Positions 35,637-54,394 of a stretch of DNA of 64,000 bases are shown in pieces. Within the stretch, counting starts at the first letter, position 1. Each line of letters begins with the position of its first letter. A program made the position numbers and the translations under genes. The notes beneath the pieces were generated by a model. That model had not been told where the DNA came from. It was given only the letters and a program-made list of their open reading frames with translations, and did not search any database. Location of the stretch: NCBI GenBank assembly GCA_019637095.1, contig JAHBWG010000019.1:1-64000 (forward strand), given 5' to 3'. Source of the DNA: Sandaracinaceae bacterium (GTDB lineage: Bacteria > Myxococcota_A > Polyangia > Polyangiales > Sandaracinaceae).

Positions 35637-36656
35637 TCAGGGCGTGACGAGCGTCGCGGCGACCGCGTCGATCTCGAGCGCGATCGAGATCCCCTCGCAG
35701 AAGCCGTCCGAGTCGAGATCGAGGTCGGCGAGCTGCTCGGCGATCGCCTCGACGGTCGCGGTGTCGACGGGCGGCTCGACGTTCAGCGACTCGATCGTCG
35801 CGGGCACGTCCTCGCGCCGCACGTGCCCGGTCATCAGGCCCGCCTCGAGCCGCGTCTCGCTCGCGCGCCCGGCGATGCGCAGGCCGGACAGCTCGATGTG
35901 CAGCGTCCCGCCGTCGCTCGCCGGGATGCGGAGCGAGAAGCTCCCGCCGGGCGTGTGGAGGTAGCCGCCGCGCAGGCTCGCGCCGCGCAGCTCGGTCCGC
36001 GGCCGCCCCTCGATCAGCGACTCGGGGTGGATCCGAAACGTCTGCCCCGCCGCGAGCAGCATCAGGCTCCGGCCGTCGATCACCGCCGGCTCGAGCGCGA
36101 GCGCCGCCGTCGGCTCGACGCGGAAGACCGCGACGTCGACGCCGCCGTCGTCGATCGGGTGCCCGATGCGCGAGATCCGGATCGCGTGGAGCGCCCGCCC
36201 GCGCGCGAACGACGCGAGGAGATCCGCGTTGAAGTCGACCGCGTCGTTGAGCGCGCGGATCGCGGTGAGGATCAGCGGCGACTGGTTGTCGACGCCCGCG
36301 GTCGCGAGGTAGCGGGCGGGCGCGACCCAGTCGACGACGTGGCAGCCCAGCGCGTCGCTCGTCGAGGTGGTGACGCGCTGGTCGAGGTCCATCCCGGCGA
36401 CCTCGCGCGAGCCCGTCGGTGGCATCTCGGGGAAGCGCGCGTAGCGGACCAGGAGCGTCCAGACCTCGTGCCCCTCGACGTCCGCCTGCGCGTCCGGGCG
36501 CGCCGCGTCGGGCGGCGGGGCCGCGTCCATCGTGACGCCCGCGTCGCGCGTCGGGGTCGGGGCGCACGACGCGACGGAGAGCGCGACGGAGAGGGCGAGC
36601 GCCGCGAGCAGCCGGCGAGCCCAGAGGACACGAGCGCTCGCGCGGCGTCCCGACAC
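35637..36656 (-). CDS. Lipoprotein with C-terminal EF-hand-like loop (intact copy A)
   Basis: 339 residues from GTG 36656. The signal peptide LLAALALSVALSVASC has a lipobox and is followed by a short Asp-rich linker. The body is one long beta-rich domain ending in DLDLDSDGFCEGISI, an EF-hand-like calcium loop. All but its last ~40 codons lie within the 3,379-bp repeat, so copy B (49580-50641) has the same body but a foreign C-terminus. TACGAT ends 8 nt before GTG 36656. The family was not recognised. It is divergent from the next lipoprotein gene. Confidence 0.72.
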   Translation of the reverse strand: MSGRRASARVLWARRLLAALALSVALSVASCAPTPTRDAGVTMDAAPPPDAARPDAQADVEGHEVWTLLVRYARFPEMPPTGSREVAGMDLDQRVTTSTSDALGCHVVDWVAPARYLATAGVDNQSPLILTAIRALNDAVDFNADLLASFARGRALHAIRISRIGHPIDDGGVDVAVFRVEPTAALALEPAVIDGRSLMLLAAGQTFRIHPESLIEGRPRTELRGASLRGGYLHTPGGSFSLRIPASDGGTLHIELSGLRIAGRASETRLEAGLMTGHVRREDVPATIESLNVEPPVDTATVEAIAEQLADLDLDSDGFCEGISIALEIDAVAATLVTP

Positions 36657-36664
36657 GACGACGG

Positions 36665-36670
36665 ATCGTA
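36665..36670 (-). promoter_or_regulatory. -10 box (TACGAT) for lipoprotein copy A
   Basis: The hexamer ends 8 nt before GTG 36656; the duplicate lies at 50650-50655. Confidence 0.4.
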
Positions 36671-36822
36671 GCAGCCGGCGCGCGCCGCGCGCGGGGTGCG
36701 CGCTCTTTTCTCGTGGCCGGCGCGCCGGACGCTCGGAGCGGGCACCGCGCCGAGCCGCCCGCCCGGCATTCGAGGGCACGCCACGGCCGGCTCGTGGAAC
36801 GCCGCTTGCGGAACGCGACTCC

Positions 36823-38319: not shown

Positions 38320-38337
38320 GCCGCGAGGAGGACGTCC

Positions 38338-39495
38338 TTGGAGCACGCGCGCCTGAACCGAGTCTGGAACTGGCTCCCCGCGTTCCGCGCGGTGGCCGAG
38401 ACCGAGCACCTGCCCACGGCGAGCCGCTTGCTCTGCGTGACGCCCTCGGCGCTCTCGCGGACGGTCAAGCAGCTCGAGGCCGAGCTCGGCCAGCCGCTGT
38501 TCGTGCGGGTCGGCCGGCGCCTCGAGCTGAGCCCCGCCGGTCACGAGCTGCTCGGCGCGCTGCGCGAGTCGATGAGCCGGATCGATCACGGCCTCGCGAC
38601 GGTGAGCGCCGCCGAAGCGAGCGGGGTCATCCGCGTGAGCGCGCCCGAGCCGTTCGCGACCGCGTTCGCGCTCGGCGCGCTCGAGCGCCTCGTCGCGTCG
38701 CACCCGCGCGTCGTCCCGCAGCTCGTCTCGCTGTCGCCGTCGGACGCGTGCGCGTGGGTCGCCGGAGGACGGCTCGATCTCGCGGTGATCGACGCGCCGC
38801 GCGACCGGGGCTCGCTGTCGACCGAGCGGCTCGGCGCGCTGCGCTACGGCGTCTACTGCGGAGAGGGTCACCCGCTCTTCGAGGTGCCCCGTCCCTCGCT
38901 CGCCGACCTGTCGAGCCACGCCTTCGTCGCGCTGCCGCGCGAGGCGGCGCACCCGTGGCCCGAGGCGCTCGAGCGGCGCGTCGCGATGATCGTCTCGGGG
39001 ATGCACCTCGCGGTCGAGGCGTGCGCGACCGGGCGCTACCTCGCGCGCCTCGCCGACGTCGTCGCCGAGCGCCACCGCGGCGTCGCGCTTCGTCGCCTCC
39101 CGATCGAGCTGCCCGGCGAGCACGTCGCGTACGCGCCTCCTGTTCGACGGGCGGCCGACGTCGGGGCAGCCGTACCTCGCGCGCGCGTTCTTCCCCTACC
39201 CCCGCGCGGCCGTGTTCGAGGCGTTGCAGCGTCCGTCCTCTGCGCTCACGTGGACGAAGTCGACGTCCGCGATCGCCTCCCAGGCCGCGGCCGCGTCCGC
39301 CATCGCGCGCCGCCCAGTCGCCGGCCGGAGGCGTTCTCGCGTTGCCCTGACCGTAGGCGAAGCCCACGCGCACCCGACCCGAGGCGTCGCGCCCGAGGAA
39401 CCACACCTCGAGCCCGTGGCCGCCGGCGCGCGGCGTCACCACCACCTCCGGGGCCGAGGCGCCCTGGCGAGCGAAGTTCCCCACGTCCGCGGTGA
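38338..39495 (+). pseudogene. LysR-type regulator, copy A, truncated and fused to unrelated tail
   Basis: A GAGGAGG Shine-Dalgarno precedes TTG 38338. Residues 1-265 match copy B exactly: HTH WLPAFRAVAETEHLPTASRL (interrupted wing VTPSALSRTVKQLEAELGQPL) and the effector domain up to PGEHVAYA. At 39134 identity ends, and a roughly 120-residue Arg/Ala-rich tail with no LysR similarity continues to 39495. The last ~23 residues of the effector domain are lost. DNA binding might survive, but the fold is probably unstable. The intact version is 52323-53189. Confidence 0.82.
39139..39310. pseudogene. Two rearranged fragments of the metalloprotease gene
   Basis: 39208-39310 matches 53939-54041 inside the metalloprotease gene with two mismatches, same orientation. 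39139-39200 matches 53875-53936, the adjacent piece, with one mismatch but inverted. So a 62-bp part of the gene has been flipped in place. No open frame joins the two. They sit exactly at the left island junction. Confidence 0.85.
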
Positions 39496-39746: not shown

Positions 39747-40082
39747 GTGCCCGCGCGGGCCGACGGCTACGCGCGCCGCCGTCCCGAGGACACGCTGCTG
39801 TACGCGCTGGTGCGCGAGCACTGGCCGCGGTTCCTCGAGCGCGCCGAGGAGCAAGGCGGCTTGCCGCGCTTCGTCGTGCGCGACTTCGACGAGTACCTGC
39901 GCTGCGGCCGGCTCGAGCACGGCGTCGTGCGGCTCGCGTGCCGCCGCTGCGGTCACGAGCTGCTCGTCGGGTTCGCGTGCAAGCGGCGCGGCTTCTGCCC
40001 CTCGTGCCTGGGCCGTCGCATGTCCGACGTCGCCTCGCACCTCGTGGACGAGGTGCTGCCCGAGGTGCCGATTCGGCAGTGG
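39747..40082 (+). pseudogene. N-terminal fragment of an IS91-like transposase
   Basis: 112 codons from GTG 39747 read LLYALVREHWPRFLERAEEQ, LPRFVVRDFDEYLRCGRLEHG and then a zinc-binding part with CRRCGHELLVGFACKRRGFC and PSCLGRRM. This is the zinc-binding N-terminal domain typical of IS91/IS801-type rolling-circle transposases. It breaks off right after VPIRQW, where the family continues with a conserved catalytic region; the HUH and Tyr motifs are absent, so it is inactive. The frame stays open into the downstream helicase gene by chance. Confidence 0.75.
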
Positions 40083-40307
40083 GCTGAGCCCGGTCCGGCT
40101 GCACCAGCGTTCACGGCGGCGCCCAGAGGCGGTCTGACGTGCGGGCGCGGTACCAGGCGACGAGCTCGTCGCGAACGAGACTCGCACGCGCGCGGCGCCT
40201 TCGAGAGGATGGGTCAATGGGGCGGGCTGCTCCGAGCCCGACGTGCGGTTCCCGGATGCGCCTATCGCGTGGGGCCGATCGATCCTACCCTCGCCGTTGG
40301 AGGTAGC

Positions 40308-41918
40308 GTGGCAAGGTACTACCCGCCGGAGGAGTCGGGCGACGAGTGGAGCTCCGAGCTGAAGGTTCGTCGAGCTTTCGCGACGCTCGACGACGACTGG
40401 CACGTGTTCCACTCGGTGATCTGGCAGTCGCTGCGCGCTGGTCGTCAGGGCGACGGCGAGGCTGACTTCGTCCTGGTCCATCGCCGGCACGGCGCGATCG
40501 TCCTGGAGGTGAAGGGAGGGCGCGTCGAGGTGACCTCCGGGCAGTGGTCCTCGACCGATCGTCACGGAGAAGTCCATTCCATCAAGAACCCCTTCGAGCA
40601 GGCCAAGGATTCGAAGTACGCGCTGCTGCGCTATCTCAAGAGCTTGGACGCTCGGCTCGCGAGGATTCCGATCTGCCACGGAGTCGTGTTCCCGGACGGC
40701 TCGGTTGGGTCGGGCATCGGCACCTACGGGCCACGAGACCTGATCTTCGACCGTGCCGACCTCACGGCCATTGCCGAGTCGCTCGGCCGTCTCGTGTCCC
40801 ACTGGGGTCAGTCGGCGGATCTAGACAAATCGACCATCTCGGAGGTGGTCACGGCGCTGGCGCCGACCACGACGATCCGCCGGGCTTTGCGTGATCAGGT
40901 GGCGGCGACGACGGCCGCAATCATCGAGCTGACCGAGCAACAGAAGCGAGTCCTCGCGACCACGCGCCGCATGCGGCGCTGCGTGATTCTGGGAGGGGCC
41001 GGTACCGGGAAGACCGTCCTCGCAACCGAGCGGGCCCGAATGCTCGAGCGCGATGGGTTTAGGACCCTTCTCCTCTGCTTCAACGCGCCCCTGGCCGAAG
41101 CGCTGGCTCGAGAGGTCGATGACGAAGTTGCCGAGGTGGCGACCTTTCATTCCTTCGCGATGCGCGCTCTTCGCGCCGCGGGCGCGCCGCCGCCCGAGAT
41201 CGAGCGGCCCGAGTGGTGGGACGGGGAAGCGGCCACTGCCCTGGCCAACGTGGCGGGCACCGAGTGCTGTCCGACGTTCGACGCGCTCGTCATCGACGAG
41301 GGTCAGGACTTTTCGGAGGACTGGGTCACGGCGTTGATGCTCCTGCTCTCGGATCCGGATTCGAGCCCGGTCTACCTGTTCGCCGATGCGCACCAGCAGC
41401 TGTATGGTCGGTCAACTCGGATGCCCGAGAGCTGGCCTACGCTCATCCTCGACGTGAACTGCCGGAACACGGCGCCCATCGCGATGAAGGTGGCGGCCGT
41501 GTTCGAGGACCACGCAACCTGCCTGGGCGCCGACGGCCAAGCACCGGTGTTCGTCGAGGCATCGAGTGAGGCCTCCCAGCTCTCGGTCGTCACGCAGATG
41601 ACGTACCGGATGCTGGGTGAAGGGCACCTCCGCCCCGATCAGATCGTGGTGCTGTCCGACAGCCGGACGTTCATCGACCGGCTGCGCGAGCGTCTCGCTG
41701 GCGACGAACCGTTCGTGGGCCTCAACGGGCACGGCGTCGTCGCCGAGACCATTCACCGCTTCAAGGGGCTCGAAGCGGACGCCATCATCGTCGTTCTCAC
41801 GGAGAGCAGCCCGGACCACCTCCTCCCCCTCGCGTACGTTGGGCTCAGTCGGGCGCGAGCGATGCTCGTTGTGGTCGGGCGAAGCCGGCTGAAGAAGAAG
41901 CTCCGATGGGGCGGCTAG
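40308..41918 (+). CDS. NERD nuclease-like domain fused to UvrD-type helicase
   Basis: 536 residues from GTG 40308, with GGAGGT 3 nt upstream. Residues 10-115 are a NERD (nuclease-related) domain with GEADFVLVHRRHGAIVLEVKG, so Glu51/Asp53, Glu67 and Lys69 could form the PD-(D/E)xK-like site. A superfamily-1 helicase follows: Walker A ILGGAGTGKTVLA (about 227-239), Walker B LVIDEGQDFSEDW (about 327-339), FADAHQQLYGR, TIHRFKGLEADAIIV and YVGLSRARAMLVVVG. It probably cuts or unwinds DNA as an effector. It converges with drmB, ending 1 bp away, so it belongs to the locus. Confidence 0.88.
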   Translation: MARYYPPEESGDEWSSELKVRRAFATLDDDWHVFHSVIWQSLRAGRQGDGEADFVLVHRRHGAIVLEVKGGRVEVTSGQWSSTDRHGEVHSIKNPFEQAKDSKYALLRYLKSLDARLARIPICHGVVFPDGSVGSGIGTYGPRDLIFDRADLTAIAESLGRLVSHWGQSADLDKSTISEVVTALAPTTTIRRALRDQVAATTAAIIELTEQQKRVLATTRRMRRCVILGGAGTGKTVLATERARMLERDGFRTLLLCFNAPLAEALAREVDDEVAEVATFHSFAMRALRAAGAPPPEIERPEWWDGEAATALANVAGTECCPTFDALVIDEGQDFSEDWVTALMLLLSDPDSSPVYLFADAHQQLYGRSTRMPESWPTLILDVNCRNTAPIAMKVAAVFEDHATCLGADGQAPVFVEASSEASQLSVVTQMTYRMLGEGHLRPDQIVVLSDSRTFIDRLRERLAGDEPFVGLNGHGVVAETIHRFKGLEADAIIVVLTESSPDHLLPLAYVGLSRARAMLVVVGRSRLKKKLRWGG

Positions 41919-41919
41919 G

Positions 41920-43647
41920 CTAGGTCGCAGCGCGCAAGAAGCCGCTCACTCCGCTGAGCGTCCCGCGATCGAGGAAGGCGTTGAAGTAGCGACACGAGGG
42001 TTCGCCGAGGTGCAGGCACGCCATACACGCGCCTCCCGCTCGCTTGCATCCCGGGTCGAGGGCGCAGCGGTGGTCAGCGGTCACCAGATCGGTGAGGAGC
42101 TTGTCGAGCTCCGTCTCGAAGACAGCCTGCAGACCACCGAGCACGAAGTCCCCGCGCGCGGCCGCGTAGACGAAGAACCCGAGGTGGAGCGGCACCAGCA
42201 GCTCAGACAGAGCGTTACGGTCGATCCCGGCAATCACGGCTGCACGACGGATCAAGCGATGAGAGTACGAGTGGACGAGCGTCAGGATCGCGCTCCCGAC
42301 CGTTCGCGGGCCAGGATCGGCTCCCGGCGGGGGCACTTCGCTCGCGTCGAGGATCGCGAGCCGCGCTGACCGGGAGTCCGACCACGCACGCAATTCGAAC
42401 CCTTGCGCCTCGAGCCAGCGAGCAACCTTGAGCGGGTCGAGACGGACGAAAAGCGCCTCCGTCTTCGCCACGTCTCCGTAGACCACGTAGGTCCCTCGCC
42501 TGTCGCGGAAGGGCACGAGCCCACTCGCGCCCGGAGCCGCGGGTCCTCGTGTGTAGCCGTAGTTGGCCGTCAGGACGGGGAAGCTGTCGATCAGCTCGAC
42601 GGCCTCGAGGTTCGCCTGCCCGATCACCGGGGGGTACTTGTCCCGGTAGAGCACGCCGAGGTCCGACCACTCCTCCGTGCCCTCAACGAGATCCTGATGT
42701 CGGAGCCGGCTCTCGGAGAGAGCCAACGCGATGGTTACCGCGCCCGTGCGCGCGGGTTCGAGCCGGTCCGGTGGGAGGTCGGTCGCGTCGCCGTCCTCAC
42801 CGAACGCACCCGAGGTCTCGGCCTGCTCGACCATTTTCTCGGCAACCGCTTGGGGGAGGCCGTTGTCCAGCAGCTGACGAAGCAGCCCGTCGCGAGACAA
42901 GGCTACGTCCTCGACGCGGTCGGTCATCATGCCGTCGAGAATCCACGACAGGGCCCTGTCTGGACCACCGGCTGCGGTGAGACGGCGGACCTTCTCCGGA
43001 GACGGCGCGTTGACGATGACCACGGTCCGCGGCGTGTAGACCGATGACGCGCGGTGCACGTTGGTCGTCATCCGCGCCGGCCGCCCCTGGTCGTCGGTCG
43101 CCCCACACTGGCACTTCGGAAAGCCCAAGCCGCGCTGGAGGACCGTCGCGCACTGCGGGCACTCGAATCGGATCTCGGCAGCCGAGGCCGTGCCTGGGAG
43201 CCGGATGACGACATCGTTGTGCTGCGGACATCGGGGGACGAAGGGGGGCTTCAGCGCCCCGCAATCGTGGTAGTGGACGAACGGAAGCTGCCCGAAGCGA
43301 CGTTGCCCGCAACGGCACGGGGAGAGCGTGGAGTCGGTCACGCGGTAGCAGCTCTTGCACATCCAGACTTCGGGGAACGGCTCCACCGTGACGCCGTTCT
43401 CTCGACTCAGAGAGTAGACGACGAGATCACGCCGCTGCCGCAGGTCTCGAGCGTACCCACCGTCTCTACCGGCGGCGGCCCACGGACCGGTGACGCGAAT
43501 CAGCTCGGCCCGCAGCGACTCGTGCTCTACGGGCTGGACGAGGGGCTGCCTCCACTCGGCGACCTTCCAGATCCGTCCCTTAAGGTCGACCGTCTGTTGA
43601 GGCAGGAACCCGAAGAGCACCTGCGAGGCGCTGCGCTGCTCCTTCAT
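41920..43647 (-). CDS. drmB: DrmB-like protein with C-terminal DUF1998
   Basis: 575 residues from ATG 43647, which overlaps the drmA stop (ATGA). Several zinc-ribbon motifs line the N-terminal half (CKSCY, CRCG, CGALKPPFVPRC and CPQC...CQCG, residues 97-182). The C-terminal part is DUF1998: LTLVHSYSHRLIRRAAVIAGI, ELLVPLHLGFFVYAAARGDFVLGGLQ (two pieces), then CALDPGCKRAGGACMACLHL and CRYFNAFLDRG. DUF1998 proteins next to a large helicase are the DrmB component of DISARM anti-phage systems, where DrmA and DrmB form the core DNA-binding complex. The gene symbol is by family and order. Confidence 0.88.
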   Translation of the reverse strand: MKEQRSASQVLFGFLPQQTVDLKGRIWKVAEWRQPLVQPVEHESLRAELIRVTGPWAAAGRDGGYARDLRQRRDLVVYSLSRENGVTVEPFPEVWMCKSCYRVTDSTLSPCRCGQRRFGQLPFVHYHDCGALKPPFVPRCPQHNDVVIRLPGTASAAEIRFECPQCATVLQRGLGFPKCQCGATDDQGRPARMTTNVHRASSVYTPRTVVIVNAPSPEKVRRLTAAGGPDRALSWILDGMMTDRVEDVALSRDGLLRQLLDNGLPQAVAEKMVEQAETSGAFGEDGDATDLPPDRLEPARTGAVTIALALSESRLRHQDLVEGTEEWSDLGVLYRDKYPPVIGQANLEAVELIDSFPVLTANYGYTRGPAAPGASGLVPFRDRRGTYVVYGDVAKTEALFVRLDPLKVARWLEAQGFELRAWSDSRSARLAILDASEVPPPGADPGPRTVGSAILTLVHSYSHRLIRRAAVIAGIDRNALSELLVPLHLGFFVYAAARGDFVLGGLQAVFETELDKLLTDLVTADHRCALDPGCKRAGGACMACLHLGEPSCRYFNAFLDRGTLSGVSGFLRAAT

Positions 43648-46600
43648 CGCAGCCTCCCGAGGATCGGCACCTGCTCCTCGACGTCCCGGAGGGAGATCAT
43701 GGGAGGGCCCCAAGGGCAGAGGTCCGACGGGAAGGTGACGGTGCCTGCGGGGTCCATGAGGTTCCTGAAGAACTGCTCGACCCAGCGCTCGACGTCCTCT
43801 CGCATCTTCTCGTCGAGCGGGTCGCCAAGGCCGAGGGCCTCCACGAGGGCCTGGGTCTCGACGGCGGCCGTGATCCCCTCGTCTTGGAAGTACGACCGTA
43901 GCGCTCGAACGATGGCCAGCGATCTTCCGCTGCCCGCCTCGTGGAGCGCGAGGTTCCGAGCAAGCTGCATGCCTGCGATGGTCCGTTCCAGAACCTTCCG
44001 GGAATGGCGCGTCACGGGCACGGCCTCCACGAACCGGTCGCCCTGGGAAACGAACGACTCGAAGGCGCGATGGACGCTGGCGTCCCGCTCGCGGGCGATC
44101 TTGTGCATCACGTAAACGATCCCCGGATACCGCCGGCCGACCCGGGCGGTGGCCTGGATGAATTCGGCCGTGGTCAGGGGAAGCCCGAGTACCACCATTG
44201 CGTTGAGGCGGTCGACGTCCACGCCGTGGGACATCATCGACGACGCCGCGATGACGTGGATTCGGTCGTCGAACTCCGCCTCGGGGTGATCGAGTCGGTC
44301 CAGCACCTGCCGCACCTCGTCGAACTCCGTGCGGCCGGTGAGCGTGGCGGCGTTCAGCCGACCCTTGACGGGCACCTGCGTCTCGAGCGAACGGGTCGTG
44401 GCATCCAGGTCACGCAGCGTGTTCCCGTAGACGACGTTCGTTCCGTACAGCGACAGCAACTCAGCAGCGAAGCTGTCGGGGACCGCTGCGGCCTTGCACA
44501 CGCCCGCCGGATCGTCGCGGAGCGAGCGAACCGCTCGCTGGAGCTCCGTGATCGTGCGGTCGACCGCGTACTCGAGGGTGACTCCGCGGGGGGCCACCGC
44601 GACGAACCGTCTAGCCAGCGCCTCGGTCTCAGTCGTCCAGAAGCCCTCCTTGGAGCTGGGTCCCGGAACCGGGAAGACCCGACCGTCGCGCTGGTAGAGA
44701 ACGTCGACCTGTTTCTGGTAGCCCGTGAGGGTCGCGGACGAGGCGAGGATCTTCGGCTTCGCACCCGTGAGCTCGTGCTGCAGGTGGTCGAGCAGCGCCT
44801 CGTAGTGCGCGTCGACCGCACCGAGGCTGTCCTTCAGGAGATGGAGTTCGTCCTGAAGACGGAACGAAGGTCCGAACCGCTCGGGTGGCTGTTCGAGGGG
44901 GCCCGGCTTGGCCCGACAACCCGGGACGAGGCAGCCGTGAGGGCGGCTCTTCCTCGGGGCGTAGAGGTAGCCGTGTTCCGGTCCGGTGCACTTCCCGAGT
45001 GGTGGACCTACGAGCCCGCGCATCGACGCCTGCAGCGAGATGGATGCTGCCTTGTCGAGGGTCCCCACGATCACTGTCGGAAGGAAGCGGTAGATCTCCT
45101 CGTCGACGATGAGGAAGGGCAGGGCGGTCTCCGGCCATTCGCACGCATCGTTGTTGCACCTGTGCTCGAGTCGCCACTGCCGCCGGTTGAAGCCCATCTC
45201 GATCGAGGGCTCGTGACAGAACGGGCAGGATGTGAGGACCTGGAACTTGGCCGGCATCTCGGCGTCGGTCGGGTCGGGCTCCCACTGGTTCGGGTTCTCC
45301 TTCAGACGGTTCGGCGTCGCGCCCTGACCGACCAGGAACCCTACCGAGAAAGAGGCGCCGGGGATGTTCTCCCGCCTCCGCACGACCTCAGCCCCGGCCA
45401 TCGCGTTCGCGAAGCGCTGGGTCTGCTGCAGGGACAGCATGCGCAGGGGAAACCTGCTCCAGGCGGTCAACCCGCCGAGCTTTCCGGTCATTCGATCGTA
45501 GAGCGAGGCCGTCACGAGGAGTCCGAGGTAGGTCTCCGTCTTTCCTCCGCCGGTCGCGAACCAGACGATGTCGGCGACTTCGTTCTCCGACGACGGGCTC
45601 GCGATGCACTTCAGGTTCGCGAGGAGGAAGCCGATCTGGAACGGCCGCCACGACTCGTACTTCCCGTGCGACGAATGAGCGATCGCCTCGTTCATGAGCT
45701 TGAACGCGCGAAGCAGCGTCGGCTCGGCACGTAGGAGCTCGACGCCCTCGGCGAGCCTCGCTTGCTCCTGCGCGAAGTCTGCAGCGGCGGCCTTCGCTTC
45801 GTCCGCCATGGCGGTCGACCAGAGATCCCTCTTTGCGCGTCCTGTGAGACTGTCCGTCCCCCAGGTCGCGTCGCCCCACTTCGCATGGCTCTGGACCAGA
45901 GCTTCCAACGAGCCGAGGGGGGCCTTCGCGAGGTGCTTGAAGCTGAGGTCGGGAGCCTCGTCGTCGGTGTTCCAGTACGACGGCCGCCCGCGATTGACCA
46001 CGATGGTATCCGCGGTGGCGAAGACGTCGTCGCGGAGCACGACCCCGCAGTTCACACCATAGGCGTCGATGCGGCGGTCGTACCGAAACGAGTCCGGCAG
46101 CGCCTCCAGCAAGAATGGACGTGTCTCCAAGCCCGAGAGCTCGAGGGAGCACTCGTAGAGGTTCGTGTCACACAGCTGGGGATGGTCGTGGGGGGACGTG
46201 TTCACCAACGTGACGGTCAGGTCGATCGTTCCATCGGGGTTGGTGAGCGCCTCGGTCCTCAGTTCGGCGCTCAGCACTGGCTGACCCACCACGTCCGCGA
46301 GCGCATCGGCGAGCTTGGCTGCGCCGTGGGTCTGCTCCCCTGGACCTGCGAGCGCGATGTCGATCGAGACGGAGATCGCTGGTGACTTCTTCCACTCTCC
46401 CGGGCGCTCGCGCAGCCAGGCACAGCACCGGAGCCGGACGCTCATCGTCCAGGGCGCCGATCCCTTCGGGCGCACGACGAGCCCGACGGCGCAGGGATCG
46501 AGACGCTCGCCACGGTCACCCAGCCCCAGGGCGATGACCGCGGCCTCGGGAGCCAGCCGACCCAGCCAGAACCGGCCGGACGGCTCGACATCGAGCTTGG

Positions 46601-46682
46601 TCAGATCGTCTCCGCGACCCGCTACCAGGATCTGGCGGTCGAGCCAGTCGAGGAATCGCGCACCTGCGATGTGGATGTCCAC
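43644..46682 (-). CDS. drmA: DrmA-like large SF2 helicase
   Basis: 1,012 residues from GTG 46682, with GAGGAG 6 nt upstream. Residues 370-390 hold IVWFATGGGKTETYLGLL (Walker A), then LTAWSRFPLRMLSLQQTQRF, a zinc knuckle CPFC...CNNDAC (487-514), FRLQDELHLLKDSLGAVDAH (motif II as DELH, about 611), LASSATLTG and, in the second RecA lobe, ASSMMSHGVDVDRLNAMVV and IQATARVGR. This layout is that of DrmA, the DISARM helicase. The first ~350 residues are probably the N-terminal DNA-sensing region. It is 13 bp downstream of the sigma gene and overlaps drmB, so sigma-drmA-drmB is one operon. Confidence 0.9.
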   Translation of the reverse strand: MDIHIAGARFLDWLDRQILVAGRGDDLTKLDVEPSGRFWLGRLAPEAAVIALGLGDRGERLDPCAVGLVVRPKGSAPWTMSVRLRCCAWLRERPGEWKKSPAISVSIDIALAGPGEQTHGAAKLADALADVVGQPVLSAELRTEALTNPDGTIDLTVTLVNTSPHDHPQLCDTNLYECSLELSGLETRPFLLEALPDSFRYDRRIDAYGVNCGVVLRDDVFATADTIVVNRGRPSYWNTDDEAPDLSFKHLAKAPLGSLEALVQSHAKWGDATWGTDSLTGRAKRDLWSTAMADEAKAAAADFAQEQARLAEGVELLRAEPTLLRAFKLMNEAIAHSSHGKYESWRPFQIGFLLANLKCIASPSSENEVADIVWFATGGGKTETYLGLLVTASLYDRMTGKLGGLTAWSRFPLRMLSLQQTQRFANAMAGAEVVRRRENIPGASFSVGFLVGQGATPNRLKENPNQWEPDPTDAEMPAKFQVLTSCPFCHEPSIEMGFNRRQWRLEHRCNNDACEWPETALPFLIVDEEIYRFLPTVIVGTLDKAASISLQASMRGLVGPPLGKCTGPEHGYLYAPRKSRPHGCLVPGCRAKPGPLEQPPERFGPSFRLQDELHLLKDSLGAVDAHYEALLDHLQHELTGAKPKILASSATLTGYQKQVDVLYQRDGRVFPVPGPSSKEGFWTTETEALARRFVAVAPRGVTLEYAVDRTITELQRAVRSLRDDPAGVCKAAAVPDSFAAELLSLYGTNVVYGNTLRDLDATTRSLETQVPVKGRLNAATLTGRTEFDEVRQVLDRLDHPEAEFDDRIHVIAASSMMSHGVDVDRLNAMVVLGLPLTTAEFIQATARVGRRYPGIVYVMHKIARERDASVHRAFESFVSQGDRFVEAVPVTRHSRKVLERTIAGMQLARNLALHEAGSGRSLAIVRALRSYFQDEGITAAVETQALVEALGLGDPLDEKMREDVERWVEQFFRNLMDPAGTVTFPSDLCPWGPPMISLRDVEEQVPILGRLR

Positions 46683-46695
46683 CGGTTCTCCTCGT

Positions 46696-47883
46696 TCATG
46701 TTTGGGGGTGCTCGGACTCCGACCGCGCGAGGAGCAGCTCCCGCAACGGGTTGTTAGACGTCGGGCGTCGCAGCTGCTCGAGCGCCTTACCCTCGATCTG
46801 TCGGATCCGCTCGCGCGTGACGCCGAACTCCTGACCGATGGCCTCGAGCGTGTGCATCTCTCCGTCTTCGAGACCATAGCGAAGCCGGATGATGTGCCGC
46901 TCGCGATCCGGAAGCGCGTCGATCGCGTCGAGGATCGCCGAGGCGGTCTCGCGTCCGAGCGCCTCGTCCTCCGGGCTGGCGAACGTGGATCGGATCTGGT
47001 CGCCCAGCGTCTGGTCGCCTTCCCCCCCGACTGGCTCGTCGAGAGAGGCCGGGGTGCGCGCTACGTCCAGCAGGAACTGGATCTGCGTAGGGTCCCGCCC
47101 GACCTGCTCGGCGAGCTCCTCGATCGAAGGCTCACGGCCACCGTACTCGTAGCGGAGCGCGCGCCTCGTCCTGCGGACCCTCCGCAGCAGCTCCACCGCA
47201 TGGACCGGGATGCGGATCATCCGGTCCTTGTCCGCGATGGCGCGGGTGACCGACTGACGAATCCACCACGTCGCATAGGTGGAGAAGCGGAACCCGAGGT
47301 TCGGGTCGAACCGCTCGACCGCGCGGATCAAGCCCAGCGTCCCCTCCTGCACTAGGTCGTCGATCACGAGGCTCTGGCCCGCGTACCGCTTCGCGATCGT
47401 CACCACCAGGCGGACGTTCGCGGCCACCATGTCCTGCTTCGCCCGAAGGCCGTCCTCGACCAGGGCCTTCAGCTCGCGTTGCCGGTCGGGCGCTGCCTGC
47501 TCGAGCGCCTCGCTCGCGCCAGCCCCCACCCGAAGACGGCGTGCGAGGCGCACTTCGTCTTCCGCGGTGAGCAGCTCGATTCGCGAGACCTCCCGCAGGT
47601 AGAGCTGGAGCAGGGTCTCGTCAGCCCTGCTCCAGCGGGGGGGCGGTCGCGACTCCGCTGACGGCAGTTCCTTCGCGCCGTCGCGAGCGCGGGGCGGCTC
47701 CTCCTCGTCCGCATCGAGTAGCTCGAGCGTGACGAGCTCCGTCTTCACCGCGACGAGCTCCTCGGGGGTGAGGTCGTGCCGCTCCGCCATCTGGAGCACC
47801 TGATCCGGGTCGAGGTAGCCACCCTGGCGGAAGTGGTCGTCCTCAAGGAGGCCGACGACCTTGTCAATCTTGGACGGATCCAT
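46696..47883 (-). CDS. Primary-type sigma-70 factor inside the defence locus
   Basis: 395 residues from ATG 47883. Residues 1-55 look like a small region 1.1 (KVVGLLEDDHFRQGGYLDPD). Region 1.2 is at about 89-119 (DETLLQLYLREVSRIELLTA); region 2 has ANVRLVVTIAKRYAGQSLVI, DDLVQEGTLGLIRAVERFDP and FRFSTYATWWIRQSVTRAIA (154-216); region 3 follows; region 4 is LPDRERHIIRLRYGLEDGEM and GVTRERIRQIEGKALEQLRR (324-373). All regions of a housekeeping-like sigma are there, but it is shorter than typical RpoD. It is the first gene of the drmA-drmB operon and divergent from the methylase, so it may direct RNA polymerase to these genes or be a sensor of phage takeover. Confidence 0.92.
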   Translation of the reverse strand: MDPSKIDKVVGLLEDDHFRQGGYLDPDQVLQMAERHDLTPEELVAVKTELVTLELLDADEEEPPRARDGAKELPSAESRPPPRWSRADETLLQLYLREVSRIELLTAEDEVRLARRLRVGAGASEALEQAAPDRQRELKALVEDGLRAKQDMVAANVRLVVTIAKRYAGQSLVIDDLVQEGTLGLIRAVERFDPNLGFRFSTYATWWIRQSVTRAIADKDRMIRIPVHAVELLRRVRRTRRALRYEYGGREPSIEELAEQVGRDPTQIQFLLDVARTPASLDEPVGGEGDQTLGDQIRSTFASPEDEALGRETASAILDAIDALPDRERHIIRLRYGLEDGEMHTLEAIGQEFGVTRERIRQIEGKALEQLRRPTSNNPLRELLLARSESEHPQT

Positions 47884-47938
47884 GTAATCACCGACGCGGC
47901 GCGAGCGGACCGTCTGACGGAAAACGGCCGCCCAGGTG

Positions 47939-47944
47939 TATCCT
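47939..47944 (+). promoter_or_regulatory. Promoter (-10 TATCCT) for the Vsr-methylase gene
   Basis: TATCCT lies 19 nt before GTG 47964, with a poor -35 (CTGACG at 47914-47919). The 80-bp region also must carry the promoter for the sigma operon, but no clear box is seen on that strand. Confidence 0.35.
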
Positions 47945-47963
47945 CTCACTTTTCCTGGCGCTT

Positions 47964-49541
47964 GTGGAATCGGTGACCCCCAGCGAGACGTCGGCGCGGA
48001 TGAAGCGGGTCCGCCAGACCGACACCAAGCCCGAACAGGAGGTTCGGAAGCTCGTCCGCGACCTCGGGTACCACTACCGGGTCGGCCGGAAGAGCCTGCC
48101 GGGAAAGCCCGACATCTCGAACCAGGCGCAGGGCTGGGCCATCTTCGTGCACGGGTGCTTCTGGCACGGGCACGAGCATTGCCGGCTTTCCACCCGGCCC
48201 AAGACCAACACGGCGTTCTGGCTGCGGAAGCTCGCGGCCAACCGCGAGAGGGACGGGCGGAAGGAGCGCCAGCTCCGGCGGCTCGGTTTCCGTGTGCTCA
48301 CCGTGTGGCAGTGCGAGCTCGACTCGCCCACCACCCTCACCGAACGCCTGCGGTTGTTCCTCGACGGGTCGCTTGCCGAGCTGCTGGGCAGGGACGAGGC
48401 GTTCCTCGGAGCCGTGGAGCGACCCGATTACGAGGCGGGCGAGAACGGGGTCAGCCTCGTGGACCTGTTCGCCGGATGCGGTGGTCTGACCCTGGGCGTG
48501 GCCGAGGCGTGCCGCGCGCTCGGGCGCGGCCTGCGGGTGAAGCTGGCCGTGGAGACGGATCGCGCAGCCTTCGACGTGTACCGGGCCAACTTTCGGCCCG
48601 AGCTCACGAGCCAGCCCTCACTCGTCGAGGAGTGGTTCGGCGGCGAGGTCGGATCACCACCTTCGGCCGACGAGACGGCCGTCGCGGCGAAGGTCGGCCG
48701 CCTGGACATCCTCGTCGCTGGGCCGCCATGTCAGGGTCATTCGAACTTGAACAACCACACGCGCGGCAACGACCCTCGGAACAGCCTCTACCAGCGGGTT
48801 GTGCGCGCGGTAGAGGTGCTCCGGCCGCGCTGGGTGCTCATCGAACAAGTGCCCTCGGCGAAGCGCGACACGGGGAGGGTGGTGCAAAGATCGACCGAGG
48901 CGCTCCGCAAACTCGGATACGATGTATCTGAGGGGAAGATTTCGTTGGTCCACCTCGGGGTCCCGCAAGAGCGAGAGCGCCACGTACTCATCGCCTCCTC
49001 GAAGGGTCGACCCCTGCTGAGCCACGCCTACGATCTGGGCGCGGTGGCTCCGATGCGCGACGTCAAATGGGCGATCGGCGACCTGGAAGACCTCACCGGG
49101 ACGACGCTCTACGAGACGGCCAGCAGGCTTTCGCCCGAGAACGTGAAGAGGGTCCGCTGGCTCCTCGAGAAGGATTGCTACGATCTCCCCAACCGGCTTC
49201 GTCCGGCTTGCCACCGCGACAAGCCAGACCACAAGTACAAGTCGATGTACGGACGCCTCCGGTGGAATCAGCCAGCGCAGACGATCACTACCGGCTTCGG
49301 TTCGCCGGGGCAGGGGCGCTACCTTCATCCCACCCGCAGCCGGACGCTCACGCCCCACGAGGCGGCGCGGATCCAGTTCTTCCCGGACTGGTTCGACTTC
49401 TCGGCTGCGACGACCCGAGCCGCACTTGCCCGCGTGATCGGCAACGCCGTCCCGCCGAAGCTAGGATACGCGCTCGCCCGCTACCTACTCAGCTCGGACG
49501 ATGAGCAGAGCGAGGTCGGCGATACGCGGCGTGCATCGTAG
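47964..49541 (+). CDS. drmMII: Vsr endonuclease fused to C5-cytosine DNA methyltransferase
   Basis: 525 residues from GTG 47964 (in-frame alternatives GTG 47973, ATG 48000). Residues 13-120 are a Vsr-like patch-repair nuclease: DTKPEQEVRKLVRDLGYHYR, LPGKPDI (Asp50) and VHGCFWHGHEHC (His68, His70), ending VLTVWQCEL. Residues 163-515 are the methylase: motif I SLVDLFAGCGGLTLG, IV AGPPCQGHS with Cys256, a variant motif VI IEQVP (usually ENV), VIII QERERHVLIAS, and IX-X LTPHEAARIQFFP and VIGNAVPP. It should methylate host DNA and may cut mismatched or unmodified sites. DISARM class 2 uses a C5 methylase (DrmMII); the Vsr fusion is the odd part. The symbol is by role. Confidence 0.9.
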   Translation: MESVTPSETSARMKRVRQTDTKPEQEVRKLVRDLGYHYRVGRKSLPGKPDISNQAQGWAIFVHGCFWHGHEHCRLSTRPKTNTAFWLRKLAANRERDGRKERQLRRLGFRVLTVWQCELDSPTTLTERLRLFLDGSLAELLGRDEAFLGAVERPDYEAGENGVSLVDLFAGCGGLTLGVAEACRALGRGLRVKLAVETDRAAFDVYRANFRPELTSQPSLVEEWFGGEVGSPPSADETAVAAKVGRLDILVAGPPCQGHSNLNNHTRGNDPRNSLYQRVVRAVEVLRPRWVLIEQVPSAKRDTGRVVQRSTEALRKLGYDVSEGKISLVHLGVPQERERHVLIASSKGRPLLSHAYDLGAVAPMRDVKWAIGDLEDLTGTTLYETASRLSPENVKRVRWLLEKDCYDLPNRLRPACHRDKPDHKYKSMYGRLRWNQPAQTITTGFGSPGQGRYLHPTRSRTLTPHEAARIQFFPDWFDFSAATTRAALARVIGNAVPPKLGYALARYLLSSDDEQSEVGDTRRAS

Positions 49542-49740: not shown

Positions 49741-50641
49741 TCGCGGTGTCGACGGGCGGCTCGACGTTCAGCGACTCGATCGTCGCGGGCACGTCCTCGC
49801 GCCGCACGTGCCCGGTCATCAGGCCCGCCTCGAGCCGCGTCTCGCTCGCGCGCCCGGCGATGCGCAGGCCGGACAGCTCGATGTGCAGCGTCCCGCCGTC
49901 GCTCGCCGGGATGCGGAGCGAGAAGCTCCCGCCGGGCGTGTGGAGGTAGCCGCCGCGCAGGCTCGCGCCGCGCAGCTCGGTCCGCGGCCGCCCCTCGATC
50001 AGCGACTCGGGGTGGATCCGAAACGTCTGCCCCGCCGCGAGCAGCATCAGGCTCCGGCCGTCGATCACCGCCGGCTCGAGCGCGAGCGCCGCCGTCGGCT
50101 CGACGCGGAAGACCGCGACGTCGACGCCGCCGTCGTCGATCGGGTGCCCGATGCGCGAGATCCGGATCGCGTGGAGCGCCCGCCCGCGCGCGAACGACGC
50201 GAGGAGATCCGCGTTGAAGTCGACCGCGTCGTTGAGCGCGCGGATCGCGGTGAGGATCAGCGGCGACTGGTTGTCGACGCCCGCGGTCGCGAGGTAGCGG
50301 GCGGGCGCGACCCAGTCGACGACGTGGCAGCCCAGCGCGTCGCTCGTCGAGGTGGTGACGCGCTGGTCGAGGTCCATCCCGGCGACCTCGCGCGAGCCCG
50401 TCGGTGGCATCTCGGGGAAGCGCGCGTAGCGGACCAGGAGCGTCCAGACCTCGTGCCCCTCGACGTCCGCCTGCGCGTCCGGGCGCGCCGCGTCGGGCGG
50501 CGGGGCCGCGTCCATCGTGACGCCCGCGTCGCGCGTCGGGGTCGGGGCGCACGACGCGACGGAGAGCGCGACGGAGAGGGCGAGCGCCGCGAGCAGCCGG
50601 CGAGCCCAGAGGACACGAGCGCTCGCGCGGCGTCCCGACAC
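49580..50641 (-). pseudogene. Lipoprotein copy B, C-terminus replaced at island junction
   Basis: From GTG 50641 to 49741 it encodes the same lipoprotein as 35637-36656. At 49741 identity stops and the frame runs 54 more codons into island DNA, ending at 49580 with Arg/Ser-rich sequence. The roughly 40 C-terminal residues of the intact protein, including the EF-hand-like loop, are missing. It may still be made and lipidated, but it is probably not functional. Confidence 0.8.
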
Positions 50642-50649
50642 GACGACGG

Positions 50650-50655
50650 ATCGTA
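50650..50655 (-). promoter_or_regulatory. -10 box (TACGAT), duplicate of 36665-36670
   Basis: The hexamer ends 8 nt before GTG 50641 of the truncated lipoprotein gene. Confidence 0.35.
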
Positions 50656-50807
50656 GCAGCCGGCGCGCGCCGCGCGCGGGGTGCGCGCTCTTTTCTCGTG
50701 GCCGGCGCGCCGGACGCTCGGAGCGGGCACCGCGCCGAGCCGCCCGCCCGGCATTCGAGGGCACGCCACGGCCGGCTCGTGGAACGCCGCTTGCGGAACG
50801 CGACTCC

Positions 50808-52304
50808 GTGCGGATCCCCGTCTCGCTGTTCCTGATTGCGTGCTCCCCCGTCGACCCAGGTCTCGTCGACGCGGGCGCGTCTGCCACGCTCGATGGAGGC
50901 GCCGTCGAGCGCGACGCGGCCGCGACCGACGCCGCGTCCCCAGCCGCCGACGCCGGGCCGCCCCGCGATGTGCCGCCGGGCTGCCCGTTCGGTGGGCGCC
51001 CGCCGGTCGACGACGCGCCGCTCGCGCACGCGTCCGGTCGCACCGAGACCGTTCGCGCCGGCGGCTTCGTCGACGAGTACCTCTACGACGCGACGGACCG
51101 CTTCAAGATCGGCATCCGCCGCGAGTGGGGCGGCAGCGTCGTCTTCTTCGGCGAGGGCGGCGGCCGCCCCGGCGCCAACCCGACGAACACGATCGACGCC
51201 GCCGACACCGGCCGCGAGGTCCAGATCGCCCTCTACGATCCGGACCGCCACCTCCAGGGCTGCGCGTGGGACGCGTCGTGCGCGAGCGGGGGCATGGCGT
51301 GCCCCGAGCAGATCCGTTACCTGGGCTGGAACCCGGTGCAGGGCGGCAACCGCTGCAACCAGGGCTCCGCCGTCGATCGCGTCGCGGTGAGCGGCGGCGG
51401 GCTCGTCGCGACGGTCGTCCCGCTCCAGTGGAACCCGGACTGGGCGGCGCGCGACTGCACGACCGACACCTGCCGCGGCGCGGGCGCGCGCGCGACGAGC
51501 GACGTGCGCGTGACGCAGACCGCCCGCTTCGTGCGCCCGCGCGTCGTCGAGCTGCGCTACCGCATCGAGAACCTCGCCGACGTCGATCACCGCCCGACCG
51601 CGCAGGAGCTGCCGACGATGTACTCCTCCTACGGCCGCGACGGATCCCAGGATCTGTGGCGCCTGATGGACCCGAGCGGCGCGCAGATCCCGATCGACAC
51701 GCCGACCGGGGGCGACGGGTTCTTCTACGAGAACTTCACCGCGAGCGGCCCCTGGGTCTCGCTCCAGAACGACGACCTGAGCCACGGCGTCGGGATCCTG
51801 TACGAGAACGGGCTGCGCGACTTCCAGGGATGGCAGCAACGATCCTTGCCATTCAACAACGTCCGCTCGCGCGTCGTCTTCGGCCTGCCCGCGCGCGGCG
51901 TCGTGCACGCGCGCGCCTACCTGCTGCTCGGCTCGTTCGCGACCATCGCGGCCGAGGCGGCGAGCGTCTTGGCGGCGATGCCGCCGTTCGGGTGGCTCGA
52001 CGGACCCGCCGCCGAGGTCGGCGCCGGCCCGACCCCGATCCACGGCTGGGCGCTCGACAACCGCGGCGTCACCGCCGTCGAAGCGCGCATCGACGAGCGC
52101 GTGACCGTCCCGCTCTCGTACGGCGCCTCGCGGCCGGACGTGTGCCTCGCGTGGCCGGGCTATCCGCGCTGCGACGCGGTGGGCTTCGCGGGCAGCCACG
52201 ACTTCGGGCCGCCGACCGCCTGCCCGCACCTCGTCGAGATCATCGCGACCGACGCCGACGGGAACCGGCGCACGATCGCGGAGCGCCTCGTGACCGTCCG
52301 CTGA
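50808..52304 (+). CDS. Large lipoprotein (copy B)
   Basis: The same 498-residue protein as at 36823-38319, from GTG 50808; the entire gene and its upstream region lie inside the repeat. It is followed after 18 bp by an intact LysR gene, so this copy keeps the original downstream context. The two copies make the cell carry two doses of the product. Confidence 0.7.
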   Translation: MRIPVSLFLIACSPVDPGLVDAGASATLDGGAVERDAAATDAASPAADAGPPRDVPPGCPFGGRPPVDDAPLAHASGRTETVRAGGFVDEYLYDATDRFKIGIRREWGGSVVFFGEGGGRPGANPTNTIDAADTGREVQIALYDPDRHLQGCAWDASCASGGMACPEQIRYLGWNPVQGGNRCNQGSAVDRVAVSGGGLVATVVPLQWNPDWAARDCTTDTCRGAGARATSDVRVTQTARFVRPRVVELRYRIENLADVDHRPTAQELPTMYSSYGRDGSQDLWRLMDPSGAQIPIDTPTGGDGFFYENFTASGPWVSLQNDDLSHGVGILYENGLRDFQGWQQRSLPFNNVRSRVVFGLPARGVVHARAYLLLGSFATIAAEAASVLAAMPPFGWLDGPAAEVGAGPTPIHGWALDNRGVTAVEARIDERVTVPLSYGASRPDVCLAWPGYPRCDAVGFAGSHDFGPPTACPHLVEIIATDADGNRRTIAERLVTVR

Positions 52305-52322
52305 GCCGCGAGGAGGACGTCC

Positions 52323-53189
52323 TTGGAGCACGCGCGCCTGAACCGAGTCTGGAACTGGCTCCCCGCGTTCCGCGCGGTGGCCGAGACCGAGCACCTGCCC
52401 ACGGCGAGCCGCTTGCTCTGCGTGACGCCCTCGGCGCTCTCGCGGACGGTCAAGCAGCTCGAGGCCGAGCTCGGCCAGCCGCTGTTCGTGCGGGTCGGCC
52501 GGCGCCTCGAGCTGAGCCCCGCCGGTCACGAGCTGCTCGGCGCGCTGCGCGAGTCGATGAGCCGGATCGATCACGGCCTCGCGACGGTGAGCGCCGCCGA
52601 AGCGAGCGGGGTCATCCGCGTGAGCGCGCCCGAGCCGTTCGCGACCGCGTTCGCGCTCGGCGCGCTCGAGCGCCTCGTCGCGTCGCACCCGCGCGTCGTC
52701 CCGCAGCTCGTCTCGCTGTCGCCGTCGGACGCGTGCGCGTGGGTCGCCGGAGGACGGCTCGATCTCGCGGTGATCGACGCGCCGCGCGACCGGGGCTCGC
52801 TGTCGACCGAGCGGCTCGGCGCGCTGCGCTACGGCGTCTACTGCGGAGAGGGTCACCCGCTCTTCGAGGTGCCCCGTCCCTCGCTCGCCGACCTGTCGAG
52901 CCACGCCTTCGTCGCGCTGCCGCGCGAGGCGGCGCACCCGTGGCCCGAGGCGCTCGAGCGGCGCGTCGCGATGATCGTCTCGGGGATGCACCTCGCGGTC
53001 GAGGCGTGCGCGACCGGGCGCTACCTCGCGCGCCTCGCCGACGTCGTCGCCGAGCGCCACCGCGGCGTCGCGCTTCGTCGCCTCCCGATCGAGCTGCCCG
53101 GCGAGCACGTCGCGTACGCCGCGCATCGCGCGGGGGCGTGCGGCGCCGTCGCCGCCCTCCTGCGCGAGCTGCGCGCCGCGTTCGCGTGA
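52323..53189 (+). CDS. LysR-family transcriptional regulator (intact copy B)
   Basis: 288 residues from TTG 52323 with GAGGAGG upstream. The winged HTH (WLPAFRAVAETEHLPTASRL, VTPSALSRTVKQLEAELGQP) is followed by a type-2 periplasmic-binding-like effector domain (IRVSAPEPFATAFALGALER, WVAGGRLDLAVIDAP) that ends properly at AALLRELRAAFA. This is the complete version of the truncated copy A. The target is unknown; the lipoprotein gene 18 bp upstream is the closest candidate. Its 3' end overlaps the antisense tail of the metalloprotease reading frame. Confidence 0.88.
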   Translation: MEHARLNRVWNWLPAFRAVAETEHLPTASRLLCVTPSALSRTVKQLEAELGQPLFVRVGRRLELSPAGHELLGALRESMSRIDHGLATVSAAEASGVIRVSAPEPFATAFALGALERLVASHPRVVPQLVSLSPSDACAWVAGGRLDLAVIDAPRDRGSLSTERLGALRYGVYCGEGHPLFEVPRPSLADLSSHAFVALPREAAHPWPEALERRVAMIVSGMHLAVEACATGRYLARLADVVAERHRGVALRRLPIELPGEHVAYAAHRAGACGAVAALLRELRAAFA

Positions 53190-54394
53190 GACGCGCGCGA
53201 GGGACGGACCGCCATCCCTCCCTCGCGCAGCTCGGCCGCTCGAGGCTCGACCCAGCGCACCTCCAGCGTGTAGCTCGCGTCGGTGAAGCCGTGGACCATC
53301 ACGTTCGCGGTGCGCGCCCCCGACGGGACCCGCAGCTCGCACGTCTCGGCGCTGTCCGCCGAGTAGGGCCGGCATGCGTAGGCGGTGCTCGTGGGCGCCT
53401 GGTCCCACGCGACGTAGAGGTCCGCGTCGCCCGTCCCGCGCAGGCGCGCGAGGAACGTCGAGCCCGGCGCGACCGAGAAGGCGCGGTAGCGGACCGACTG
53501 CCCCGCGGTGACGGTGCCGCTCGCGGTCCCGCTCTTCTGCGTCCCGCTCGGCGTCGGCGTCGGCGTCGGCGCCGGCCCGCCCCCGCGCGGCGGCCCGTAG
53601 AGCGCGGCCGCGCCCTGCGCGTCGAGCGCCGAGATCGTCAGGTCTCCGCGCACCCCGTTGCACTGCGGGTAGTGCATCACCGACTCGCGGTCGTACGGCG
53701 TGACGGCGCGCCACGCGGAGTCCTCGTAGCAGGCGCGCGCCTCGGGCCGCGTGTGCTCGTGGCGGAAACCGAGCGCGTGCCCGAGCTCGTGGCGCAGGAT
53801 GCCGGTGAGCGTGAGGCTCCCGCCCGGCGCGTACGCGCTCGAGTCGACGAGCACGTTGCGCGTCGAGCGCCCCTGGTAGGGGAAGAACGCGCGCGCGAGG
53901 TACGGCTGCCCCGACGTCGGCCGCACGTCGAACAGGACGGCCGTGTTCGAGGCGTTGCAGCGTCCGTCCTCTGCGCTCACGTGCACGAAGGCGACGTCCG
54001 CGATCGCCTCCCAGGCCGCGGCCGCGTCCGCCATCGCGCGCACGACCGTGGCGTGGCGCGAGCCGAACCCGGTCGAGACGCAGTAGGTGAGGCTCCGCTT
54101 CTGCGTCGAGCTCCAGATCGAGTCGCGCCCGTCGACCCGCACGACGGTGAGCGCGTCGGGCGCGACGAGCTGCTCGTAGAAGTCGACGAGGCGCTTCTCG
54201 GTGTCGATCGGCGTGTCGCCGTCGACGATCCAGACGCCGTCCGCGTCCCGATGGACGCCCTCGAAGAACTCCTCCCAGCTCGGCAGCGACTCGCCCGAGC
54301 GGGCGAGGTCGGGGTCCTCGAAGACACCCCCTCCCTCGGCCGCACAGCCCGCCGCCACGAGCAGCCACGACACGCAAATACGATTGCTTCGCAC
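53021..54394 (-). CDS. Secreted zinc metalloprotease (matrixin/astacin type) with PPC domain
   Basis: About 457 residues from GTG 54394 behind GGAGGTGG. The signal has a lipobox (LLVAAGC, Cys17). The protease domain contains HELGHALGFRHEH (about 202-214), the long metzincin zinc motif, and a Met-turn SVMHYP (about 238-243). After a Thr/Pro linker (GGGPAPTPTPTPSGTQ) comes a PPC-like beta domain ending near YTLEVRWVE. The frame then runs 75 residues further, antisense to the LysR gene; that tail may not be natural. Likely predatory or matrix protease at the surface. Parts of a close relative lie at 39139-39310. Confidence 0.86.
   Translation of the reverse strand: MRSNRICVSWLLVAAGCAAEGGGVFEDPDLARSGESLPSWEEFFEGVHRDADGVWIVDGDTPIDTEKRLVDFYEQLVAPDALTVVRVDGRDSIWSSTQKRSLTYCVSTGFGSRHATVVRAMADAAAAWEAIADVAFVHVSAEDGRCNASNTAVLFDVRPTSGQPYLARAFFPYQGRSTRNVLVDSSAYAPGGSLTLTGILRHELGHALGFRHEHTRPEARACYEDSAWRAVTPYDRESVMHYPQCNGVRGDLTISALDAQGAAALYGPPRGGGPAPTPTPTPSGTQKSGTASGTVTAGQSVRYRAFSVAPGSTFLARLRGTGDADLYVAWDQAPTSTAYACRPYSADSAETCELRVPSGARTANVMVHGFTDASYTLEVRWVEPRAAELREGGMAVRPSRASHANAARSSRRRAATAPHAPARCAAYATCSPGSSIGRRRSATPRWRSATTSARRAR

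What the first reader, a model, noticed from the sequence alone, without database searches (positions are those of the whole stretch)
47964..49541. Vsr nuclease fused to a C5 methyltransferase
A Vsr domain with Asp50, His68 and His70 precedes a complete C5 methylase in one frame. Vsr and Dcm are usually separate genes. In a defence locus the fused nuclease might cut at T:G mismatches made by the methylase, or act as the effector that DrmC provides elsewhere. Motif VI is EQV instead of ENV.
Basis: partly seen in the sequence, partly recalled or inferred. Interest (0 to 1): 0.62.

Follow-up and report, generated by a model that had tools for sequence, protein, structure and literature searches.

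The report
DNA methylase fused to its repair nuclease
A bacterial defence island carries one protein that most likely both marks the cell's own DNA with methyl groups and starts repair of the mutations those marks cause; the two enzymes are well known, but in every relative I could check they are separate genes.

Summary
One uninterrupted ORF (47964-49541 +, 525 aa) joins a complete Vsr mismatch endonuclease (aa 1-~135, catalytic, zinc and intercalating positions kept) to a complete C5-cytosine methyltransferase (aa ~138-525). Motif VI is EQV, unlike all 36 relatives aligned. A sequencing frameshift is unlikely: no stop in the other two frames near the junction, steady codon periodicity, and homology of the two halves abutting within a few codons. 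In the nearest relatives Vsr and methylase are separate genes; no second fusion was found.

The ORF belongs to a DISARM-like cassette (sigma-70, DrmA-like, DrmB-like, NERD-helicase) seen in four places. Next to the sigma gene, the three intact copies carry a T:G-mismatch repair gene: fused Vsr (window), separate vsr (Roseomonas), or a Mig-like G:T glycosylase and no Vsr (Kofleriaceae MAG). This favours Vsr as the methylase's deamination-repair partner and argues against the effector idea: an orthologous cassette lacks both Vsr and DrmC, and the NERD domain is the better nuclease candidate. The methylase itself is of the Druantia-II DruM clade.

New architecture of known enzymes in a rare DISARM variant. 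No activity has been tested; the evidence rests on one fusion and three intact cassettes.

The parts
47964..49541 (+). Vsr-C5 methyltransferase fusion, 525 aa, GTG start
47964..48374 (+). Vsr domain with tail helix (aa 1-~137); active site E24, D50, H68, H70, D97; Zn ligands C65, H70, C73, C117
   Evidence: alignment with 1cw0 and relatives
48375..49541 (+). C5 methyltransferase domain (aa ~138-525): motif I 167-174, IV 253-264, VI EQV 294-296, VIII 332-343, IX 460-477, X 492-501
46696..47883 (-). RpoD-like sigma-70 factor (resembles MzaA); probable ATG at 47883 by alignment with L003
43644..46697 (-). DrmA-like YprA-family helicase; GGGKT, DELH and SHGVD motifs present; 59% identical to L003, 56% to Roseomonas OT10
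41920..43713 (-). DrmB-like protein (C-terminal Cys cluster of DUF1998 type)
40309..41918 (+). NERD nuclease plus SF1 (UvrD-like) helicase; GEADF..LEVKGG nuclease motif kept; the listed ORF starts at 39714 inside an ISCR/IS91 fragment
47884..47963 (.). 80-bp divergent intergenic region between the sigma gene and the fusion gene
   Evidence: ORF coordinates

Best explanation
The protein is the modification arm of a sigma-factor-containing DISARM-like defence system, with its own repair enzyme built in. The C5 methylase marks host DNA so that the DrmA/DrmB machine treats it as self. Methylated cytosines sometimes deaminate to thymine, leaving T:G mismatches at the methylase's own sites. The N-terminal Vsr domain nicks next to the mismatched T, and very short patch repair then restores the C. 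Fusion keeps the repair enzyme at a 1:1 ratio and on the same sites. It most likely arose when an adjacent vsr-methylase gene pair, still separate in relatives, became one frame. Shown here: the fusion, intact Vsr active-site residues, the cassette, gene-pair ancestry on trees, and presence of a Mig-like glycosylase instead of Vsr in a sister cassette. Inferred: enzyme activities, shared target site, self-marking.
For: True Vsr subfamily over its curated cut-off with all key residues. The window's Vsr groups (6-row clade, 99/89) with Vsrs of L028 and L004, which lie beside methylases of the window's own methylase clade (7-row clade, 100/100); in L004 the two genes overlap by ATGA. The Roseomonas OT10 cassette (DrmA 56% identical) has a separate vsr divergent from the sigma gene, the same place as the fusion. 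The Kofleriaceae cassette (DrmA 59%) has a Vsr-less methylase, no Vsr found in its genome, and directly upstream of sigma an HhH-GPD gene. That gene's best PDB match is 1kea, the G:T mismatch enzyme. At the two MutY adenine-specificity positions V45 and Q182 (A50 and L187 in Mig.MthI) it has Ala and Trp by the alignment, and it is additional to that genome's other two HhH-GPD matches. Serratia DrmAB is less active on 5mC DNA (PMC9142583).
Against: No activity is known. EQV instead of ENV could weaken the methylase. Only three intact cassettes and one fusion. The methylase of the Roseomonas cassette is from another C5 clade, so the link is of function, not of one lineage. The L003 glycosylase scores higher against the MutY model than other NCBIfam models, though below cut-off, and has Trp where Mig.MthI has Leu; T:G activity is inferred. 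DNA next to the island is duplicated and scrambled, so assembly trouble nearby is possible.
Confidence: 0.7

Rival explanations
1. The Vsr domain is the effector nuclease of the DISARM-like system, cutting invading DNA in place of DrmC.
For: No DrmC-like gene among the cassette genes of the window; Vsr-type nucleases are predicted active domains fused to YprA helicases in ARMADA (PMC12458937).
Against: The orthologous L003 cassette has no Vsr. DrmC is dispensable and often absent. A NERD nuclease is present here and in L003 and L111. The Vsr is of the mismatch-repair subfamily and is joined to the methylase, not the helicase.
Confidence: 0.13
2. The fusion is an accident of gene overlap and the Vsr half or the methylase half is inactive.
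For: EQV is unique among 37 aligned methylases; the fusion is found once.
Against: All Vsr catalytic and zinc positions and the other methylase motifs are kept; coding periodicity is normal.
Confidence: 0.12
3. Sequencing or assembly error joined two genes.
For: Draft of 197 contigs; relatives have overlapping separate genes; duplicated and scrambled DNA flanks the island.
Against: No stop in either other frame near the junction; a clean in-frame join within a few codons; the neighbouring long ORFs are intact.
Confidence: 0.05

Closest known systems
Vsr/Dcm very short patch repair pair
   Same: Same two enzyme families, Vsr active site intact, adjacent genes in relatives
   Different: One polypeptide, Vsr first, in a defence cassette; target site unknown
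DISARM (DrmA, DrmB, C5 methylase)
   Same: YprA-family helicase and DUF1998-like partner as separate adjacent genes with a C5 methylase
   Different: Divergent DrmA/DrmB (DrmA 390 bits against a 950 cut-off), no DrmC or DrmE found, extra sigma factor and NERD-helicase, methylase of DruM clade
Druantia type II DruM methylase (with neighbouring vsr in some loci)
   Same: Methylase half scores best against DruM2 (382 bits); relatives L002, L004 and L088 sit by DruE2 and DruK
   Different: No DruE here; helicase is DrmA-like; Vsr fused
Mig.MthI G:T mismatch glycosylase
   Same: Same presumed task, repair of deaminated 5mC, for the HhH-GPD protein of the L003 cassette
   Different: Glycosylase rather than endonuclease; not in the window

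Membership tests
Vsr endonuclease (TIGR00632) | Score over curated cut-off | tested here: met
   125.3 vs 97.85 bits
Vsr endonuclease (TIGR00632) | Catalytic, zinc and intercalating residues of E. coli Vsr | tested here: met
   all kept except T63 to V62, as in 49 of 56 rows
Vsr endonuclease (TIGR00632) | T:G mismatch nicking at the methylase site | not testable with these tools
   needs biochemistry
C5-cytosine methyltransferase | Motifs I, IV, VIII, IX, X | tested here: met
C5-cytosine methyltransferase | ENV motif VI | tested here: inconclusive
   EQV: catalytic Glu kept, Asn replaced by Gln. Membership rests on the other motifs and on the TIGR00675 cut-off being passed; the effect on activity is unknown
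DISARM | drmA and drmB as separate adjacent genes plus a methylase | tested here: met
   PADLOC DrmA 352.6 and DrmB 98.8 bits; PDB DrmA 7s9v E 4.6e-62
DISARM | NCBIfam curated cut-offs for DrmA and DrmB | tested here: not met
   390.2 vs 950 and 65.4 vs 240 bits; hence 'DISARM-like', not filed as DISARM
DISARM | DrmC PLD nuclease (typical, not essential) | tested here: not met
   none of the five island genes is a PLD protein
Druantia type II | DruE2 helicase with DruM | tested here: not met
   DruM-clade methylase present, but the helicase is DrmA-like

The most novel reading that the evidence does not exclude
A DISARM subtype defined by its own sigma factor regularly carries a dedicated repair module for the mutations its methylation causes. 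The module is interchangeable (vsr, fused Vsr, or G:T glycosylase), and here it has become one polypeptide with the methylase: self-marking and scar repair in a single enzyme.
Probability: 0.4. Interest if true: 0.6.

Novelty: new variant of a known kind. Interest (0 to 1): 0.42.

Why it matters
If true, it is a natural test of what Vsr is for. It would show that defence systems that mark the genome with 5mC also carry repair for the mutational cost, and that this function can be swapped between unrelated enzymes. It also points to a little-described DISARM variant with its own sigma factor and a methylase shared with Druantia II.

Tried and rejected
Frameshift artefact: tested by frame, stop and codon-phase analysis and by relatives; unlikely. 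Other fusions: single-piece matches H9 and H13 each have a stop between vsr and methylase; long open frames in L092 and L099 are not Vsr-methylase fusions; none in Polyangia (317 genomes), a Myxococcota sample (377) or a sample of 274 genomes from the class of Brachymonas; viral contigs gave no relatives. Further cassettes in a sample of 289 genomes of the class of Erythrobacter NAP1: none. A literature search for a Vsr-methylase fusion found none, but the library holds only open-licence papers. Foldseek hits for the model are dominated by the methylase half, so the Vsr half rests on sequence.

Full report
What is there. The ORF at 47964-49541 (+) is open from a GTG to a stop, 525 aa. Residues 4-118 are a Vsr endonuclease above the curated cut-off and residues 164-507 a C5 methylase. 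Aligned to the solved E. coli Vsr (1cw0, E 8.9e-27) and 54 other relatives, the window keeps E25, D51, C66, F67, W68, H69, H71, C73, W86, N93, D97 and C117 (as E24, D50, C65, F66, W67, H68, H70, C73, W86, N93, D97, C117); T63 is Val, as in most of the family. Which of these residues are catalytic, zinc-binding or intercalating is taken from my knowledge of the E. coli enzyme. In the methylase, motifs I, IV, VIII, IX and X are standard. Motif VI reads EQV, whereas all 36 other methylases aligned have Asn. AlphaFold2 with a 25-row alignment gives confident models for both halves (mean pLDDT 84.4, pTM 0.79), with helices 122-133 and 136-149 between them.

Is the fusion real? The nearest relatives have two genes. 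Corallococcus terminator (L004) has an ATGA overlap; a same-family genome (L028) has overlapping frames; the Rubrobacter marinus plasmid has a 4-bp overlap. In the window the other two frames contain no stop between the Vsr end and motif I (first at 48487), so one indel would not give two ordinary genes. GC by codon position stays in phase through the join, and the homology of each half stops within a few codons of the other. A base substitution that removed a stop cannot be excluded. The own genome has no other Vsr.

How common? A peptide-pattern scan of 84,980 species' genomes returned 24 loci, none fused. Polyangia (317 genomes), a Myxococcota sample (377) and a sample of 274 genomes from the class of Brachymonas gave no second fusion. 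In plasmids (60 records with both parts) and phages (9) only the listed rows were looked at; two plasmid matches that ran in one piece have a stop between the genes. 'Unique' therefore means unique in what was searched, at close-relative sensitivity.

The island. GC falls from about 75% to 67% at 40-49.5 kb. Besides the fusion it holds a NERD nuclease-helicase (+), a DrmB-like gene (-), a DrmA-like gene (-) and an RpoD/MzaA-like sigma-70 factor (-), the last divergent from the fusion by about 80 bp. DrmA and DrmB are divergent: well below NCBIfam cut-offs, though DrmA matches solved DrmA 7s9v at 4.6e-62. None of the five genes is a PLD nuclease.

Relatives of the whole cassette. (i) L003/G067, Kofleriaceae MAG: DrmA 59%, DrmB, NERD-helicase, sigma and a 56% methylase with no Vsr; no Vsr was found in that genome, a MAG of 96% estimated completeness. 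Directly upstream of sigma lies a 248-aa HhH-GPD protein. Its best PDB match is 1kea, the G:T mismatch repair enzyme (117.1 bits, with MutY close behind at 116.1). At the two positions that set adenine specificity in MutY (V45, Q182; A50, L187 in Mig.MthI; PMC2714593) it reads Ala and Trp, by my reading of the alignment. It lacks the length for MutY's C-terminal domain, and the genome has two other HhH-GPD matches. NCBIfam's best but sub-threshold model is mutY, so T:G specificity is inferred. (ii) L110, Roseomonas sp. OT10 plasmid: vsr (separate, divergent), sigma, DrmA (56%), DrmB, C5 methylase of another clade; no NERD-helicase found. (iii) L111, Burkholderia aenigmatica plasmid: methylase, DrmA, DrmB, NERD-helicase and sigma, but broken by frameshifts and an IS3; no repair gene recognised. 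So each of the three intact cassettes has one T:G-repair candidate, next to sigma.

Where the pair came from. The methylase half scores best as Druantia-II DruM2 (382 bits against 132 for DrmMII). Its relatives L002, L004 and L088 stand beside DruE2 and DruK. On trees the window methylase is in a 7-row clade (100/100), and its Vsr groups with those of L028 and L004 (6-row clade 99/89), which neighbour methylases of that clade. The Vsr-less L002 and L003 methylases nest inside, so Vsr was probably lost there. This fits an inherited vsr-methylase pair that fused once.

Mechanism. Serratia DrmAB is less active on 5mC DNA, and DrmC is non-essential and often missing (PMC9142583). The simplest reading is that the methylase half marks self and the Vsr half repairs T:G mismatches left by deamination at the same sites. 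The effector reading is weaker, because an orthologous cassette lacks both Vsr and DrmC while a NERD nuclease is present in the window, L003 and L111. All activities are inferred.

Verdict. A real and, in the searched data, unique fusion of two known enzymes in a rare sigma-containing DISARM-like variant. Interest is moderate; the interchangeable repair slot is the more interesting part and rests on three cassettes.

Noticed in passing
35756-39134 and 49741-53119: Perfect 3379-bp direct repeat flanking the island; at the left junction (39131-39310) pieces of 53875-54041 appear inverted and direct. Recent duplication at insertion or an assembly artefact.
   Followed up: partly
39790-40090: Fragment of an ISCR/IS91-type transposase zinc domain fused in frame upstream of the NERD-helicase; absent from the L003 homologue. 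Possible trace of how the island moved.
   Followed up: partly
40309-49541 versus L003:5250-14769: Gene order differs: the methylase is at the NERD end in L003 and at the sigma end in the window.
   Followed up: partly
46696-47883: RpoD-like sigma factor resembling MzaA, present in all four cassettes; its target promoters are unknown.
   Followed up: no
L002:9974-19094: The sister methylase of the L003 one sits beside Druantia-II DruE2/DruK: the same methylase lineage is shared between Druantia-II and DISARM-like systems.
   Followed up: partly
L055:11522-17827: A vsr-methylase pair in a same-family genome lies beside a Type II helicase / MzaC-MzaD-like gene set.
   Followed up: no
G000:C35:28150-30084 (outside the window): A second DrmA-like gene in the same genome, 36% identical.
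   Followed up: no
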